DNA of 64,000 nucleotides from a virus. Location: positions 1-64,000 of IMG/VR virus record IMGVR_UViG_3300032224_000679, one strand, 5' to 3'. The notes beneath the pieces are model-generated. The model was not told the origin of the DNA, did no database searches, and saw nothing but the letters and a program-made list of their open reading frames with translations. Numbering within the stretch: position 1 is the stretch's first letter; each line of letters opens with the position of its first letter. The position numbers and the translations under genes are program-made. Positions 417 to 8,657 of the stretch are shown here, in pieces.

Positions 417-2181
417 AATAAAATCATTATCAGCTAAAAATTTTATGAGTGTGGGCAATGCCACACAGGGCATAGACTTTGATCGTCGAGACTTAACACT
501 GGTCCTAGGTGAAAACTTAGACTTAGGCGGGGACGACAGCGGTGCTCGTAATGGTACTGGTAAGACTACTATCATCAATGCACTGAGCTATAGTCTGTTT
601 GGACAAGCACTGACCAACATCAAAAAAGATAACTTAATCAATAAAACCAATACTAAAAGTATGTTGGTTACTATTGACTTTGAGTGTGAAGGGCAAAGTT
701 ATAGAATTGAACGTGGGCGTAAACCCAACGTGCTTAAATTTTACATAGGTGATAACGAGCTGGAAAGCAAAGACGATAATAGTCAAGGTGACAGTAGAGA
801 AACCCAAGCAGAGATTGAACGACTGCTTAATATGAGCCACGACATGTTCAAGCATATCGTAGCTCTTAACACTTACACTGAACCGTTTTTAAGTTTAAAA
901 GCCAATGATCAACGTACTATTATTGAACAGCTATTGGGCATTACTATGCTCAGTGACAAAGCAGAGTCTTTAAAAGAACAAAATAAAGCCACTAAAGATG
1001 CTATTCAAAAAGAAGAATTTAGAATCAAAGCAGTAGGCGATGCCAACAAGCGTATACAGGATCAAATTGATGCATTGGTACGTAGACAAGTGTTGTGGCA
1101 GCGTAAAAAGGAAGAAGATTGTGCGGCACTACAGGCTGCGTATGATCAGCTAGCAGAGCTGGACATTGAAGCAGAGCTAGATGCACACAAAGCCTTGGCT
1201 GCATATAATGAAAAGTCTAAAAAGATTGCTGAACTAAATCGCTGGATCAAACAATGTGAAACTGACGAGCGTAGGGAGACCAAACTAGCAGAGCAATTAA
1301 AAACTGAGATCGCTAGTTTAGAAAATCATACTTGTCATAGTTGTGGACAAGCATTCCACGACAGCAAGCAAGAACAGATATTAGAAGACAAACGTAAAAC
1401 CCTGCAAGAAACTGCACTACAGGCATTGGCTACTAATTCACAGTTGTTAGAGCATACCACTGCCCTTACTGAGTTGGGAGAACTGGGCAACAAGCCAACT
1501 ACATTTTATGCTACGGAATTAGATGCTTTTGAACATAGAAGCAGTATGGGATCTGTGCTCACACAGCTAACATCTAAACAGTTGGAAGCAGATCCTTATG
1601 CGGATCAAATCAAAGACATGCAGGAAACTGCTGTTGAAGAAATTACCTACGATATAATCAACGAGCTTACTAGAATCAAAGAGCACCAAGAGTTTTTGCT
1701 TAAATTGTTGACTAACAAAGACAGTTTTATTCGTAAAAAAATTATTGATCAAAACCTAAGTTACTTAAATGCTAGATTAGGATATTATTTGGATCGTATT
1801 GGACTGCCGCATACAGTTAAATTCCAAAATGATTTGACTGTTAGTATTGAAGAACTGGGCCGTGAGCTAGACTTTGATAATTTAAGTAGGGGAGAACGTA
1901 ACAGACTTATACTTTCTCTGTCATGGGCATTCCGTGATGTGTGGGAAAGTTTATATCAACCCATTAACTTGCTGTTCATTGACGAACTTGTTGACAGCGG
2001 TATGGATGCCAGTGGTGTTGAAAATGCATTGGCTATACTTAAAAAGATGAGCCGTGAGGGTAAAAAGTCTGTTTGGTTAGTTAGTCACAAAGATGAGCTA
2101 GCAGGACGAGTTAACAACATCCTCACAGTCGTAAAAGAAAACGGATTCACAAGTTATAACACGGACATAGAAGTTGTTTAA
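409..2181 (+). CDS. 46: gp46-like recombination endonuclease subunit (SbcC/Rad50 family)
   Basis: Large ATPase subunit of the T4-type gp46/gp47 (Rad50/Mre11-like) complex, which resects DNA ends for recombination-dependent replication and helps degrade host DNA. Visible parts in order: Walker A GARNGTGKTT at residues 45-54, a long charged coiled-coil arm, a zinc-hook CHSC at 309-312 in the middle, a second coiled coil, the ABC signature LSRGERN near 492-498, and Walker B LLFIDE near 521-526. The length (590 aa) fits the family, T4 gp46 being about 560. The expected gp47 partner is not in the window and may lie upstream. The gene overlaps both neighbours by 8 bases, typical of a tight operon. 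Confidence 0.95.
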   Translation: MFKIKSLSAKNFMSVGNATQGIDFDRRDLTLVLGENLDLGGDDSGARNGTGKTTIINALSYSLFGQALTNIKKDNLINKTNTKSMLVTIDFECEGQSYRIERGRKPNVLKFYIGDNELESKDDNSQGDSRETQAEIERLLNMSHDMFKHIVALNTYTEPFLSLKANDQRTIIEQLLGITMLSDKAESLKEQNKATKDAIQKEEFRIKAVGDANKRIQDQIDALVRRQVLWQRKKEEDCAALQAAYDQLAELDIEAELDAHKALAAYNEKSKKIAELNRWIKQCETDERRETKLAEQLKTEIASLENHTCHSCGQAFHDSKQEQILEDKRKTLQETALQALATNSQLLEHTTALTELGELGNKPTTFYATELDAFEHRSSMGSVLTQLTSKQLEADPYADQIKDMQETAVEEITYDIINELTRIKEHQEFLLKLLTNKDSFIRKKIIDQNLSYLNARLGYYLDRIGLPHTVKFQNDLTVSIEELGRELDFDNLSRGERNRLILSLSWAFRDVWESLYQPINLLFIDELVDSGMDASGVENALAILKKMSREGKKSVWLVSHKDELAGRVNNILTVVKENGFTSYNTDIEVV

Positions 2182-3277
2182 CTATACTGCTATTGACGAA
2201 TATCAAATTGAAATTACAAGTTACTGTAATGCTGCCTGCCCACAGTGCCCTAGGAATAATCTGGGTGTGGGCATTAATCCTTATATGCCTTTGACGCATT
2301 TACCACGTGCAACTATTGATCAAGCATTTGACACCGAATTGTGTCAGCGGTTAAGACAAGTATTTTTCTGCGGCAGTTATGGTGATCCAATAATGCACCC
2401 AGACTTCTTAGAAATATTACGCGACTTTAGATATAAAAGTCCTACACTGTGGTTGTACATACACACTAATGGCGGAATGCATGATCCTGAATACTGGGCA
2501 GAGATAGCCCGCATCATGAACGGCTATGGGCAAATAGACTTCGGCATTGACGGCTTAGAGGATACTTTACATCTGTACAGAAAGAATGTAAAATACAGCA
2601 CTGCTATTGCTAATGCACAAGCATTTATCAATGTTGGTGGCAGAGCACAATGGAATTTTATTGTTTTTAAACATAACGAACATCAAGTCGAGCAAGTTCA
2701 ACAACTGGGACAAGACATGGGTTTTCACAATGTGTTGATCCGTAAAACTGGAAGATTTTTGAATCACACTACTATGACTGAGTTAGATGCTTGGCCTGTT
2801 GCTAATGCAGAACATGTACTAGAACCACCCAGCAAAGAAGAATATAGAAATCGTAGTATGCAATACTTGCCAGATCTTAAGAAACAATATATCAATATTA
2901 AAGATTACTTTGACACTACACCTATACGTTGTGATGCATTAATGGGCAAGAAAGTTGCCATTAACGCCGAAGGTGTAGTATTACCTTGTAATTTTTTTAA
3001 TCATAACTTGTATGATGTTAGATTTAGAGATGGTGTATTGCCTGGAGCAAATCCATTGAGCACAGTCAATGGCAAAAATCAAGTACGTGAGTTTTTGGAA
3101 AATTACGGGTTAGAAAACTTAAACATACACAATAAAACATTGCCAGAAATATTTGATAATGAGTTTTGGCAGGACCTTGTAGCATCGTTCAATAACAGCA
3201 ACAGACTATTTGAATGTGCCATGACCTGTGGTGAGAAATTTACAAAAGTATGGGATCAAGGAGGATCCAAAAGATGA
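2174..3277 (+). CDS. Radical SAM protein with C-terminal extra-cluster region
   Basis: 367-residue radical S-adenosylmethionine protein. The cluster-binding CX3CX2C motif is CNAACPQC at residues 18-25. A C-terminal region with further cysteines (RCDALMGKK, VLPCNFF and CAMTCG near the end) looks like a SPASM/twitch-type auxiliary iron-sulfur domain, as found in peptide- or carbohydrate-modifying enzymes. The substrate cannot be read from the sequence. The start used is a TTG overlapping the gp46 stop by 8 bases. This start gives the normal short N-terminus directly before the first beta strand. The stop overlaps the ATG of the dehydrogenase that follows (ATGA), so the two are coupled and may act in one pathway. 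Radical SAM genes are known as accessory genes in aquatic T4-like phages. Confidence 0.85.
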   Translation: MFNYTAIDEYQIEITSYCNAACPQCPRNNLGVGINPYMPLTHLPRATIDQAFDTELCQRLRQVFFCGSYGDPIMHPDFLEILRDFRYKSPTLWLYIHTNGGMHDPEYWAEIARIMNGYGQIDFGIDGLEDTLHLYRKNVKYSTAIANAQAFINVGGRAQWNFIVFKHNEHQVEQVQQLGQDMGFHNVLIRKTGRFLNHTTMTELDAWPVANAEHVLEPPSKEEYRNRSMQYLPDLKKQYINIKDYFDTTPIRCDALMGKKVAINAEGVVLPCNFFNHNLYDVRFRDGVLPGANPLSTVNGKNQVREFLENYGLENLNIHNKTLPEIFDNEFWQDLVASFNNSNRLFECAMTCGEKFTKVWDQGGSKR

Positions 3278-5150: not shown

Positions 5151-5500
5151 CATTATAGGCACTGTGCTGAGTGTTTGACTCAGCCCCATTGAGGATATGT
5201 GAAATACCATATTCAGACTTGGGCGCCAAAGAACAATGCTAACTTCAGGCATAAATGGTTCGGGCTCTGTGAAACAGATACAACCCGTGCTCGTAGGATT
5301 TGGGTCTATTCCGGATTACTAGGGTTCCGTTGACATGTGAAGCTAGAGTAGGGGGTACAGGTCAACCGCCTCCGCGCTGTAAAGCAATCTCTTTAGAATA
5401 GATGACTGTGCTACTCGGATGATGCACATTTTTCACCCTGTTAGGGTGAATTGTGACCGATTAATCTGGATGATACTATTAATCGCTTTGCTCTTAAAGA
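5151..5500. ncRNA. Candidate structured non-coding RNA (gene-free, GC-rich, hairpin-rich)
   Basis: There is no coding frame for about 400 bases between convergent genes. Bases 5221-5400 contain 88 G or C of 180 (49%), about twice the share in the gene just upstream. Clear stems: GCTGAGT/ACTCAGC (5166-5172 with 5178-5184, loop of 5), CTGT-GAA-ACAG nested inside CGGG...CCCG (about 5261-5287), GTTGAC/GTCAAC (about 5329-5364), TTCACCC/GGGTGAA (5432-5438 with 5444-5450) and GATTAAT/ATTAATC (5459-5465 with 5478-5484). The string TGTGAA recurs three times in hairpin-loop-like positions. ACTGTGCT occurs at both 5161-5168 and 5405-5412. I do not recognise a known RNA class (no tRNA, tmRNA or RNase P signatures), and the strand is undecided. 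Confidence 0.4.
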
Positions 5501-5509
5501 AAAGAAAAT

Positions 5510-5554
5510 AGTACTGAGCGATAGCGAAAGTACTGGACCTTGCGTAGCAAGTCC
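5510..5554 (-). terminator. Tandem hairpins / terminator after the gp26-like operon
   Basis: Directly after the minus-strand stop at 5555 come two hairpins. The first is GGAC-TTGC-TAC-GCAA-GTCC (5554-5535, one bulged base). The second is AGTACT...AGTACT (5534-5510). They are followed on the minus strand by a T-rich tract (TTTTCTTTTCTTT). This fits an intrinsic terminator for the minus-strand transcript. The plus strand has no T-run here. Confidence 0.5.
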
Positions 5555-5784
5555 TTAAAAGAATGGCAATCCTGTTTCTTTAGCAACGTCTAAGTTCTCA
5601 GTGATCATATCATTAATAAGTTCTCTATCATGATAACTAGTTGTCCATGCTTCTTCTAATGACATGCCACCTCTCATATACCAACACATTTTAATTAATG
5701 ATTTCTTTAAGGCTTTTGACTCATTATCTAATTGTTTGAGCCATTCAACGACTTCCTCATTGGATAAAGTCAAAAGCCTTAGCC
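5555..5784 (-). CDS. Small downstream domain, probably expressed as a -1 frameshift extension of the gp26-like protein
   Basis: The reading frame is open from the slippery site at 5785-5791 to the stop at 5555. The only internal start is a TTG at 5773, giving 72 residues with no ribosome binding site. The protein is helical and charged (EEVVEWLKQLDNESKALKK, then GMSLEEAWTTSYHD). The upstream gp26-like gene ends with the zero-frame codons TTT TTC preceded by T, the canonical -1 heptamer T TTT TTC. Slipping there leads directly into this frame, adding Arg-Leu-Arg-Leu before the TTG codon. A fused product of about 356 residues is predicted. The layout copies the lambda G/GT type of tail-assembly chaperone, which sits next to the tape measure gene as here. 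Independent translation from the TTG remains possible. Confidence 0.7.
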
Positions 5785-5791
5785 GAAAAAA
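5708..5791 (-). promoter_or_regulatory. Predicted -1 ribosomal frameshift signal (slippery heptamer plus 14-bp stem)
   Basis: The minus-strand RNA reads T TTT TTC at 5791-5785 in the correct zero frame of the gp26-like gene, two codons before its stop. Three bases later a stem starts: TAAGGCTTTTGACT (5781-5768) is perfectly complementary over 14 bases to AGTCAAAAGCCTTA (5721-5708), with a 46-base loop. The first pairs are A-U, so the effective spacer is probably nearer 5 bases. Both arms lie in coding sequence, so chance is an unlikely explanation. Confidence 0.8.
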
Positions 5792-6624
5792 CTTGATAGT
5801 TCAAATCTCAATGGTGCTGTGTAGTTTTTCATGCATGGTTCATTTTCGCAGTGTACTGGAATATTTTTCAGTGCATCAGCTTCGCCAATTTCAGTAATTC
5901 TATCTCTAACTGCATGCCATATGGGCCTATCACAATTTGCAAAAAACTCAGTGAGTTGTGCAGGATCTGATACCACTAGTCCGTCGGGCATTTTTATTCC
6001 TGCTACATTATTGGATACTTGTTTTACAGTCATATCTAATACACTACGAAACAGTTGATTAAATTTTATTAGTTTCTCAGTTTCGGAAATAGATTCGTTT
6101 TGTACAACCGACAGTAATCTTTGCTCCTCATATGATTTCATACTAGCACGGTTAAAGTCCAAGAAACTCAAAGGTTTTAAATAAATTTCTAAATCTTCTA
6201 CTAATATAGGTGTGTCAAAATCTGGACATTTAATTGTGTTTAATAAAAATTCTAGATCTGCTGCATGATCATTTTTGCTTCCACAGTGTGGGCATACACT
6301 GACAAATTCCATACGATTTCCGTAGGTAGCAATTCTTATAGCAATTAATATACTATCTAAGTCTGTGCTGGGAATTTTCCAAGCATCTTTAATAGCAGGG
6401 CAGCAACTTTGAATTACATCCACAGTACTTTGACCATTTAACAGTGCGTCAGGTGTTTTGCTGGCCAGTTCGTCTCTAGCAGTCATAGCATAAACTGGCA
6501 ATTCCCCAGTTACTGGTAATTCAACGCCACCTGCCCACCATTTACCCCCACTGGGTAGTTTTAAGTGTAGTTGGGGCTGTCTAAAGTATTTTGTTAACGG
6601 GTTTGAATGAGTTTGGTCCACCAT
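5779..6624 (-). CDS. 26: gp26-like baseplate / tail assembly protein
   Basis: 281-residue protein resembling the T4 gp26 family of baseplate hub and assembly proteins, here longer than T4 gp26 (about 208). The N-terminus has LKLPSGGKWW and the MTARDE segment typical of the family. The middle carries a CPHCGS zinc-knuckle-like motif paired with later cysteines (IKCPD, CENEPC). The C-terminal half is helical. The ATG at 6622-6624 starts the protein. It is divergent from the tape measure-like gene by 56 bases. Its 3' end holds the T TTT TTC heptamer that would feed a fraction of ribosomes into the small downstream frame. This suggests it works as a tail-assembly chaperone made in short and long forms. 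The family call rests on sequence pattern only. Confidence 0.75.
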   Translation of the reverse strand: MVDQTHSNPLTKYFRQPQLHLKLPSGGKWWAGGVELPVTGELPVYAMTARDELASKTPDALLNGQSTVDVIQSCCPAIKDAWKIPSTDLDSILIAIRIATYGNRMEFVSVCPHCGSKNDHAADLEFLLNTIKCPDFDTPILVEDLEIYLKPLSFLDFNRASMKSYEEQRLLSVVQNESISETEKLIKFNQLFRSVLDMTVKQVSNNVAGIKMPDGLVVSDPAQLTEFFANCDRPIWHAVRDRITEIGEADALKNIPVHCENEPCMKNYTAPLRFELSSFFG

Positions 6625-6680: not shown

Positions 6681-8657
6681 ATGAGCGACATTGACCCAGC
6701 CCAAATACAAAATCTAATGAACTCGTTAAATCTAACGAGTGCTCAAGCAGAAGATGTTGCAAGATCATTAGGCCGATTAAGCCAATCATCTAGGGGTGCA
6801 GCCAATGCCGCAGACGCACAAAGAGATGCGACTGGTCGTCTTATCAGTAGCTATGACAGTTTAAAAACTGGATTCAGCGGGTTAGGGCAAGGTATTGGTT
6901 CTGCGGCACAAGGTATTAATACACTAACATCCAGCGTGGGATCTACACGTGATATGTTCATGGCATTGATACCAAGTATTAATTTTGCACATGATATATT
7001 CAATAAACTGGTTCTTTCTACTGGAGGCTTTGCTAGTGCGTTAACACAAGCCGCAGAAGGTTTGCCTAGTTTATTTGGTAAAATTGCTGGTGCTATGCAT
7101 GCATCTGGCGAAACGTTTAAAAAAGTTATTTTGGCAGCTGGTGATATTGCGTTTAATGCTGCCAAGACTCAAGTTTCAGAAACACAAAAACTAGTAAACG
7201 AATTTAAGGCCATGGCTGATGCGGGCATGACATTTGGTGGTAGTTTTGAAGCCGCGACAGCGGCTGCACATGCCGCAGGCGTTAGCATGGAAACATTTTC
7301 ATCTTTTGCATCCAAAAGTGCAGCCAATCTAGCCTTAATTGGTACAAGTTCACAATCAGCCGCAGGGATGATTATGAAAATGGCCAAGGATGTAAGCCCG
7401 GGTTTAATGGACATATACGGTTCTATGGACAACATAGCCAGTGAAATGGCAAACTATGTTGCGCTACAAACTGGATTAGGTGTTGATGCAGTTAAAAATC
7501 AAAAAGAACTTGAAGAAGGTGCTAAACGATATCTGTTAAACGAAAGAGAAATGAGTAATTTAACAGGTAAAAAAGTAGATCAGCTAAGACAAGAAGAAAA
7601 ACAAAGACAACAGTCAGCAGCATATCAATTAAAGATGCAAGAACTGGACCCAGCACAACAAGCAAATCAGAAGTTCCTATTTGATATGCTTACTAAACAG
7701 TATGGAGAATTAGGCTCACGAATGGCCATGAATCAATTGTTGAATGGTGATGCTTCTGCTGGTAATCCAGACCTTATGAGATTAGAATCACAAGTGCCTA
7801 AGTTATTCGAAACAGTTAATGGTATGGCACGTAATATCAATTTAGATTCTGAAACTTTTAAACGAACTGTTGGAGAAACTCTAGCAAGCTCAGCTGACCC
7901 AATTAAAGATCAAATTAAAGGATTACAACCTTTATTGACTTATGCCGCATCTGGTATAGGTAATGATATCTTTAATCAATTGAATAAGTTACTTGCACCT
8001 GTCTTGGGATCTTACAGTGAACAAGTAAATTCCCCTGCAGCCGTGGCAGCATCTATACAGAATTTCAATGCCGCAATGTCTAATACTGGTAGTATGGTTG
8101 ATAGTATGACTGCGGCAATTGAAAAAATGAAACGAGCACTCGAAGGTGTGACTATACAGAATTTAGATATGGTAAGCGATGCAATAACATTAGCTACCGG
8201 CTTAATAAAACCCGACGGTGCATACGTAGAAGCACTTGGCACTGCAAGGAAATTATTTTCAGCATTGGCAGACCCAACAGATGCTAACAAGTGGCTTGCT
8301 GTATTAGATAAATTAGGTAAGGATTTAACTCCTATAGGTGATACGATTGGGGGTACAGTTGCTCCACCTCGTCGTCCTGATGATCCTACTCCTAGAACTC
8401 ATCCTATAGAACAGTTGACAGAAAAAATTGAAGAACTAATACAAACAATAAAAAATTGGAGTCCAATTAGAACAAGTTCTGCAGATGCAGACTTGCCTGT
8501 ACTTGCTTCTGCCAGCAGAATCAATCGTTCACCAACTCCAGAAACTGATCCAGTGTTGCTTGCACTACAAGATCAAAATAGAATATTAGAAGACGTGGCT
8601 CAACATTCAAAAGACACTGTTGACATGCAAGGAAAAATATTGAATGCTCTAGCATAA
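6681..8657 (+). CDS. Tape measure-like tail protein
   Basis: 658-residue protein, Ala/Ser/Met-rich and mostly helical, with long hydrophobic helical stretches around residues 85-165 (SIGSTRDMFMALIPSINF-type sequence), a charged coiled-coil part near 270-320 (KNQKELEEGAKRYLLNERE) and a proline-rich linker near 560-575 (APPRRPDDPTPRTHP) before a short C-terminal helical tail. This composition and length fit a tail-length tape measure, the T4 counterpart being gp29 (about 590 residues). It lies next to the predicted frameshifting assembly gene, the usual neighbour of tape measure genes, although here on the opposite strand. The ATG at 6681 has no strong ribosome binding site. A late promoter lies at 6637. 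Confidence 0.7.
   Translation: MSDIDPAQIQNLMNSLNLTSAQAEDVARSLGRLSQSSRGAANAADAQRDATGRLISSYDSLKTGFSGLGQGIGSAAQGINTLTSSVGSTRDMFMALIPSINFAHDIFNKLVLSTGGFASALTQAAEGLPSLFGKIAGAMHASGETFKKVILAAGDIAFNAAKTQVSETQKLVNEFKAMADAGMTFGGSFEAATAAAHAAGVSMETFSSFASKSAANLALIGTSSQSAAGMIMKMAKDVSPGLMDIYGSMDNIASEMANYVALQTGLGVDAVKNQKELEEGAKRYLLNEREMSNLTGKKVDQLRQEEKQRQQSAAYQLKMQELDPAQQANQKFLFDMLTKQYGELGSRMAMNQLLNGDASAGNPDLMRLESQVPKLFETVNGMARNINLDSETFKRTVGETLASSADPIKDQIKGLQPLLTYAASGIGNDIFNQLNKLLAPVLGSYSEQVNSPAAVAASIQNFNAAMSNTGSMVDSMTAAIEKMKRALEGVTIQNLDMVSDAITLATGLIKPDGAYVEALGTARKLFSALADPTDANKWLAVLDKLGKDLTPIGDTIGGTVAPPRRPDDPTPRTHPIEQLTEKIEELIQTIKNWSPIRTSSADADLPVLASASRINRSPTPETDPVLLALQDQNRILEDVAQHSKDTVDMQGKILNALA

What the first reader, a model, noticed from the sequence alone, without database searches (positions are those of the whole stretch)
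5708..5791. Predicted programmed -1 frameshift joins the gp26-like protein to a small downstream domain
Seen: T TTT TTC in the zero frame two codons before the stop of the gp26-like gene; an uninterrupted -1 frame running straight into the 72-residue ORF, which has only a TTG and no ribosome binding site of its own; and 3 bases downstream a 14-bp perfect stem with a 46-base loop inside coding sequence. Known: tail-assembly chaperones of many long-tailed phages (lambda G/GT) use such a slip, next to the tape measure gene, and the tape measure-like gene is adjacent here. I know of no description of this for T4-type gp26. If real, it supports gp26 being the T4-lineage equivalent of G/GT.
Basis: partly seen in the sequence, partly recalled or inferred. 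Interest (0 to 1): 0.92.

Follow-up and report, generated by a model that had tools for sequence, protein, structure and literature searches.

The report
Conserved frameshift in phage tail chaperone
In a large virus of bacteria distantly related to T4, ribosomes are predicted to slip back one base near the end of a tail-assembly gene, so that one gene makes a short and a long helper protein; the slip site is kept in dozens of related viruses, while T4 itself carries two separate genes instead.

Summary
Observation confirmed; interpretation supported by comparison. The gp26-like gene (6624-5779, minus) ends AGT TTT TTC GGC TAA; a perfect 14-bp stem starts 3 nt after TTTTTTC and the -1 frame is open for 78 codons. 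The heptamer alone is unremarkable (11 in the window, 17 expected). Conservation decides: all 39 loci compared, down to below 30% protein identity, keep T TTT TTN in the right phase while the distance to the stop varies. The -1 product is under purifying selection (dN/dS about 0.1) and, in the window's clade, the stem covaries. In T4, gp26 ends in non-slippery TTC TTT, and gp51 is a gp26 paralogue that already carries the extension: duplication replaced the slip. Best reading: a tail assembly chaperone made as short and long forms, like lambda G/GT. The idea is not new in principle: Vladimirov et al. 2022 (not readable here) identified short and long chaperones of T4-like phages, and a later paper cites it for poly-T slip sites. 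The breadth, the covarying stem and the KVP40/T4 split may be new. Slippage, the fused protein and tape-measure binding are unmeasured.

The parts
5779..6624 (-). gp26-like gene, short form, 281 aa (stop included in coordinates)
   Evidence: PF12322 41.4 bits against cut-off 24.5, phrog_150 E 2.9e-12; only PF12322 gene in the 85-kb record
5785..5791 (-). slippery heptamer T TTT TTC
   Evidence: conserved in phase in 39/39 loci
5779..5781 (-). zero-frame stop TAA, inside the stem in the window
5768..5781 (-). 5' arm of the stem
   Evidence: covariation of the core over 22 loci
5708..5721 (-). 3' arm of the stem
   Evidence: covariation of the core, synonymous constraint
5558..5791 (-). -1 frame extension, 78 aa from the FF (stop at 5555-5557); long form about 356 aa
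   Evidence: purifying selection; helical model pLDDT 84.6
6681..8657 (+). divergent 658-aa gene, candidate tape measure protein (inferred)
   Evidence: position conserved in most relatives; no family match to a tape measure

Best explanation
The gp26-like gene encodes a tail assembly chaperone in two forms. Most ribosomes stop at TAA and make the 281-aa short form. A minority slip back one base on T TTT TTC, both phenylalanine tRNAs re-pairing with TTT TTT, helped by the stem just downstream. They then read a further 76 codons and make a long form of about 356 aa that ends in a helical domain. By analogy with lambda G/GT, the two forms coat the tape measure protein, the tail of the long form contacting it. 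In T4 and close relatives the same two products come from two genes: gene 26 (short) and gene 51 (a gp26 paralogue with the extension fused on). Shown by sequence: conserved slip site, coding -1 frame, covarying stem, gp26/gp51 relationship. Inferred: that slippage happens, its rate, and the chaperone role.
For: Slip site in phase in 39/39 loci, naive probability 10^-20.7 if the loci were independent, which they are not; stop distance variable, phase fixed. Natural control: T4 and VR5 gp26 keep Phe-Phe but as TTC TTT, not slippery, and have a separate gp51. dN/dS in the -1 frame beyond the stem 0.06-0.19 where dS is not extreme or undefined, against 0.74-1.55 in frame 0 for the same pairs. Stem: 90.6% of cells paired, covariation score 0.193 against 0.120 +/- 0.011 shuffled (0/500), one pair U-A in 17 and C-G in 5 loci; identical-codon use in the arms 71% against 44% elsewhere, 0 of 20000 random sets. 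T4 gp51 matches PF12322 (E 3.9e-52, residues 1-201) and, at 147-246, phrog_634, which also matches the -1 extensions of S-SSM6a and phi-pp2 (E 1.6e-26 and 1.3e-21). Tree: T4-type gp26 and gp51 together (93/88), slip-type phi-pp2 their sister (80/89). gp26 and gp51 are listed as hub assembly chaperones in a review (PMC3004832).
Against: No protein or reporter measurement. 16 of 39 loci have an ATG/GTG in the -1 frame near the stop, some overlapping it (TAATG, ATGA), so a free small protein could also be made there. The RaK2/CBB/XbC2/Munch/BF group has no stable downstream structure (z -0.9 to +1.4). The link between jumbo-phage and T4/cyanophage extensions is moderate (hhalign probability 80, E 1.4e-5, 35 columns), and direct comparison of the window's gp26 clade with gp51 is weak (probability 18). 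The gp26 model matches no solved structure. The tape measure identity of the neighbour is not established.
Confidence: 0.9

Rival explanations
1. Termination-reinitiation: the ribosome stops at TAA and restarts nearby (TTG here, overlapping ATG elsewhere), making the small domain as a separate protein.
For: 16 of 39 loci have an ATG or GTG near the stop, some overlapping it as TAATG or ATGA; several databases annotate a separate small ORF.
Against: The start is not conserved: 23 of 39 loci have no ATG/GTG near the junction and several, such as L042, L043, PA5oct, RaK2, S-RIM8, have no start at all there, while the heptamer is invariant. T4 gp51 shows the domain fused to a gp26-type protein. 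Reinitiation does not explain the strict phase of the T run.
Confidence: 0.06
2. Both happen: a frameshifted long form plus, in phages with a good overlapping start, a free small domain.
For: Loci such as 121Q, Phosso, Atu_ph07 and phi-pp2 combine the conserved heptamer with an ATG at or next to the stop.
Against: Not possible in the many loci without a start; the window offers only a TTG lying within the stem.
Confidence: 0.15
3. The stem is not a frameshift stimulator but acts otherwise, for example on mRNA stability or translation of the downstream part; the slip works without it.
For: Other lineages with the same heptamer lack a stable structure.
Against: Position 3-6 nt after the heptamer is kept in the window's clade and the stem covaries.
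Confidence: 0.15
4. A sequencing error or a broken gene split by a frameshift mutation.
For: Homopolymer runs are error-prone (general knowledge).
Against: The same phase in 39 independently sequenced loci and purifying selection on both parts.
Confidence: 0.005

Closest known systems
T4 gp26/gp51, short and long tail assembly chaperones of T4-like phages (Vladimirov, Gautam & Davidson 2022, Virology 566:9-15; not held, known here through PMC10885494 and PMC12846349)
   Same: Same protein family (PF12322, phrog_150), same two products, same kind of C-terminal extension
   Different: T4 uses two genes (26 and 51); here one gene and a -1 slip
Lambda G/GT tail assembly chaperone frameshift (general knowledge)
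   Same: Short and long forms from a -1 slip at the end of the short gene, next to the (here presumed) tape measure gene
   Different: No sequence relation shown; other heptamer (lambda G GGA AAG); here the presumed tape measure gene is divergent rather than downstream
Tail chaperone frameshift of Adele and Vandenendeviridae, GTTTTT motif (PMC12846349)
   Same: Conserved poly-T site at the end of the short gene, -1 frame open in all relatives, small ORF usually annotated as a separate gene
   Different: Other phage families; motif GTTTTT instead of TTTTTTC; no conserved stem mentioned in the passages read

Membership tests
-1 programmed ribosomal frameshift | X XXY YYZ heptamer in the zero frame before the stop | tested here: met
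   TTTTTTC at 5791-5785; conserved in phase in 39/39 loci
-1 programmed ribosomal frameshift | open and selected coding frame in -1 across the stop | tested here: met
-1 programmed ribosomal frameshift | downstream stimulatory structure (common, not universal) | tested here: met
   covarying stem in the window's clade and two rhizobial phages; absent in RaK2/CBB-like phages; stimulation itself untested
-1 programmed ribosomal frameshift | measured frameshift product | not testable with these tools
   needs a reporter or mass spectrometry
T4 gp26/gp51 family (PF12322) | profile match above the curated cut-off | tested here: met
   window protein 41.4 bits against 24.5; T4 gp26 and gp51 both match
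T4 gp26/gp51 family (PF12322) | long form is a gp26-type domain plus a small C-terminal domain of the same family as in gp51 | tested here: inconclusive
   clear for cyanophage and KVP40-type extensions (phrog_634); for the window's clade only a moderate profile link
Tail assembly chaperone (G/GT type) | short and long forms from one locus | tested here: met
   at sequence level only
Tail assembly chaperone (G/GT type) | adjacent to the tape measure gene | tested here: inconclusive
   a large gene (about 640-900 aa where complete) lies divergently beside it in most relatives; no tape-measure family match in the window
Tail assembly chaperone (G/GT type) | fold of a solved tail chaperone | tested here: inconclusive
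   no PDB match at E <= 0.001; best fold matches are T4-type hub assembly proteins
Tail assembly chaperone (G/GT type) | absent from the virion and binds the tape measure protein | not testable with these tools
   needs proteomics and pull-down

The most novel reading that the evidence does not exclude
The -1 slip is the ancestral way of making the gp26 short/long pair across the wider T4 group (jumbo phages, cyanophages, rhizobial and KVP40-type phages). Within Straboviridae a duplication into genes 26 and 51 replaced it after KVP40-type phages split off, and in the window's lineage a covarying stem that takes in the stop codon tunes the ratio.
Probability: 0.5. Interest if true: 0.65.

Novelty: new member of a known kind. 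Interest (0 to 1): 0.55.

Why it matters
It gives a concrete role to genes that large phages mostly carry as 'baseplate hub' or 'hypothetical', and shows that the small downstream ORF is usually part of the same protein. It also offers a clear natural case of a recoding event replaced by gene duplication: KVP40-type phages keep the slip, T4 has two genes. That makes the old question of what gp51 does in T4 hub assembly directly testable.

Tried and rejected
Reinitiation at TTG: start not conserved, 23 of 39 loci without ATG/GTG. The heptamer alone as evidence: rejected, 11 in the window against 17 expected. Rfam: only chance-level matches at the site and none over threshold in the window. Solved structures by sequence and by fold for the gp26 model gave nothing meaningful. 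The extension's fold search gave only weak viral matches, among them a Citrobacter phage Moogle 'tape measure chaperone' at E 2.9. Direct hhalign of the window's gp26 clade with T4 gp51 was weak. The key paper (Vladimirov 2022) is not held, and no held paper was found that describes the frameshift in gp26 of jumbo phages. Promoter and terminator scans were at chance level.

Full report
What is there. On the minus strand the gp26-like gene (6624-5779, 281 aa) ends AGT TTT TTC GGC TAA. The stem region folds at -27.6 kcal/mol, z -4.64. The heptamer by itself occurs by chance many times in 64 kb, so comparison had to decide.

Comparison. Close relatives in viral contigs (91% and 58% protein identity) keep heptamer, stem and frame. 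Jumbo phages at about 27-33% identity (PA5oct, Phosso, Atu_ph07, CBB, RaK2 and others) keep the run of six T in the same phase, followed by a -1 extension that in most begins FFR or FFQ. So do cyanophages S-SSM6a and S-RIM8, KVP40-type phi-pp2 and Sinorhizobium phage phiM9. A search with the extension alone brought 24 contig loci, all with the T run in phase. In the final set of 39 loci 36 have TTTTTTC, 2 TTTTTTT and 1 TTTTTTG; the preceding codon always ends in T; a naive product of codon-usage probabilities is 10^-20.7, which is overstated because the loci are related. The distance from heptamer to stop varies from 3 to 33 nt in these loci, the phase never. Two loci were kept apart: VAP7, which has GTTTTTC in another phase, and a 595-kb uncultured phage whose T run lies 64 nt before the stop.

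Coding in the -1 frame. Between close relatives dN/dS in the extension beyond the stem is 0.06-0.19 where dS is not extreme, while the other two frames show ratios near or above 1. The domain is predicted all-helical with good confidence (pLDDT 84.6).

The stem. Over 22 loci the 13-pair stem is paired in 90.6% of cells; its covariation score exceeds all 500 shuffles and all slid versions; one pair is U-A in 17 loci and C-G in 5. RNAalifold finds the same core without being told. Codons in the arms vary synonymously far less than other codons of the extension (71% against 44% identical). This stem belongs to the window's clade and the two rhizobial jumbo phages. S-SSM6a and phi-pp2 have stable structure of their own there, and the RaK2/CBB group has none.

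T4. Five Straboviridae examined (T4, VR5, AM101, PM2, 44RR) have no slip site; T4 and VR5 gp26 end with Phe-Phe coded TTC TTT. All five carry a gp51-type gene next door, divergently. T4 gp51 matches the gp26 family over residues 1-201 (PF12322, E 3.9e-52) and, over 147-246, phrog_634, the family that also matches cyanophage and KVP40-type -1 extensions. So gp51 has the architecture of the frameshifted long form. A tree puts T4-type gp26 and gp51 together (93/88) with phi-pp2 as sister (80/89), as expected if a slip-bearing gene was duplicated within Straboviridae. Support is moderate and several branches are long. For the window's own clade the profile links to gp51 are moderate (extension) or weak (N-terminal part), so that step rests mainly on PF12322 and phrog_150 membership and on the shared slip site.

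Mechanism. The most economical reading is a tail assembly chaperone with short and long forms, as in lambda G/GT. That ribosomes slip, how often, and that the long form contacts the tape measure protein are inferred. A large gene, the candidate tape measure, lies divergently beside it in most relatives but has no family match in the window. The window's record (85 kb, probably partial) holds only one PF12322 gene.

Prior art. PMC10885494 reports from Vladimirov et al. 2022 that some T4-like phages carry one short gene and one longer fusion gene instead of frameshifting. PMC12846349 cites the same paper for poly-T slip sites in short-form genes of T4-like phages. The AM101 record already notes gp26 and gp51 as tape measure protein assembly chaperones. 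The core idea is therefore known. What may be new is the breadth, the covarying stem, the natural codon control and the place of the switch inside Straboviridae. I could not read the 2022 paper, so part of this may be in it.

Noticed in passing
L025 2500-2520 (Vibrio phage VAP7, Ackermannviridae): Departs from the rule: CAC GTT TTT CGC TAATG, a GTTTTT motif like that reported for Vandenendeviridae, with an overlapping TAATG start for the extension ORF.
   Followed up: partly
L015 3708-3932 (LR756511, 595-kb uncultured phage): TTTTTTC in phase 64 nt before the gp26 stop, followed by an open -1 frame of 75 aa whose second half resembles the extension domain by eye.
   Followed up: partly
L020 2685-2720 (cyanophage S-SSM6a): Its own hairpin GTATGTCTCA/TGAGACATAC directly after the slip site and stop (90-nt z -4.8).
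   Followed up: partly
5151-5554: About 400 nt without an annotated-size ORF between the end of the extension and the convergent gene, with short hairpins visible by eye; no Rfam match.
   Followed up: partly
409-2181: 590-aa ORF that looks like a gp46-type recombination endonuclease subunit (by eye; RaK2 and CBB carry gp46 near their gp26).
   Followed up: no
2174-3277: ORF with a CNAACPQC-type cysteine motif, looks like a radical SAM protein near the tail module (by eye only).
   Followed up: no
L010 2331-2540, L021 2732-2869, L022 2654-2833: Public records annotate the extension as a separate small protein with differing starts, sometimes as 'baseplate hub assembly catalyst'; likely mis-annotation of a frameshifted long form.
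   Followed up: yes
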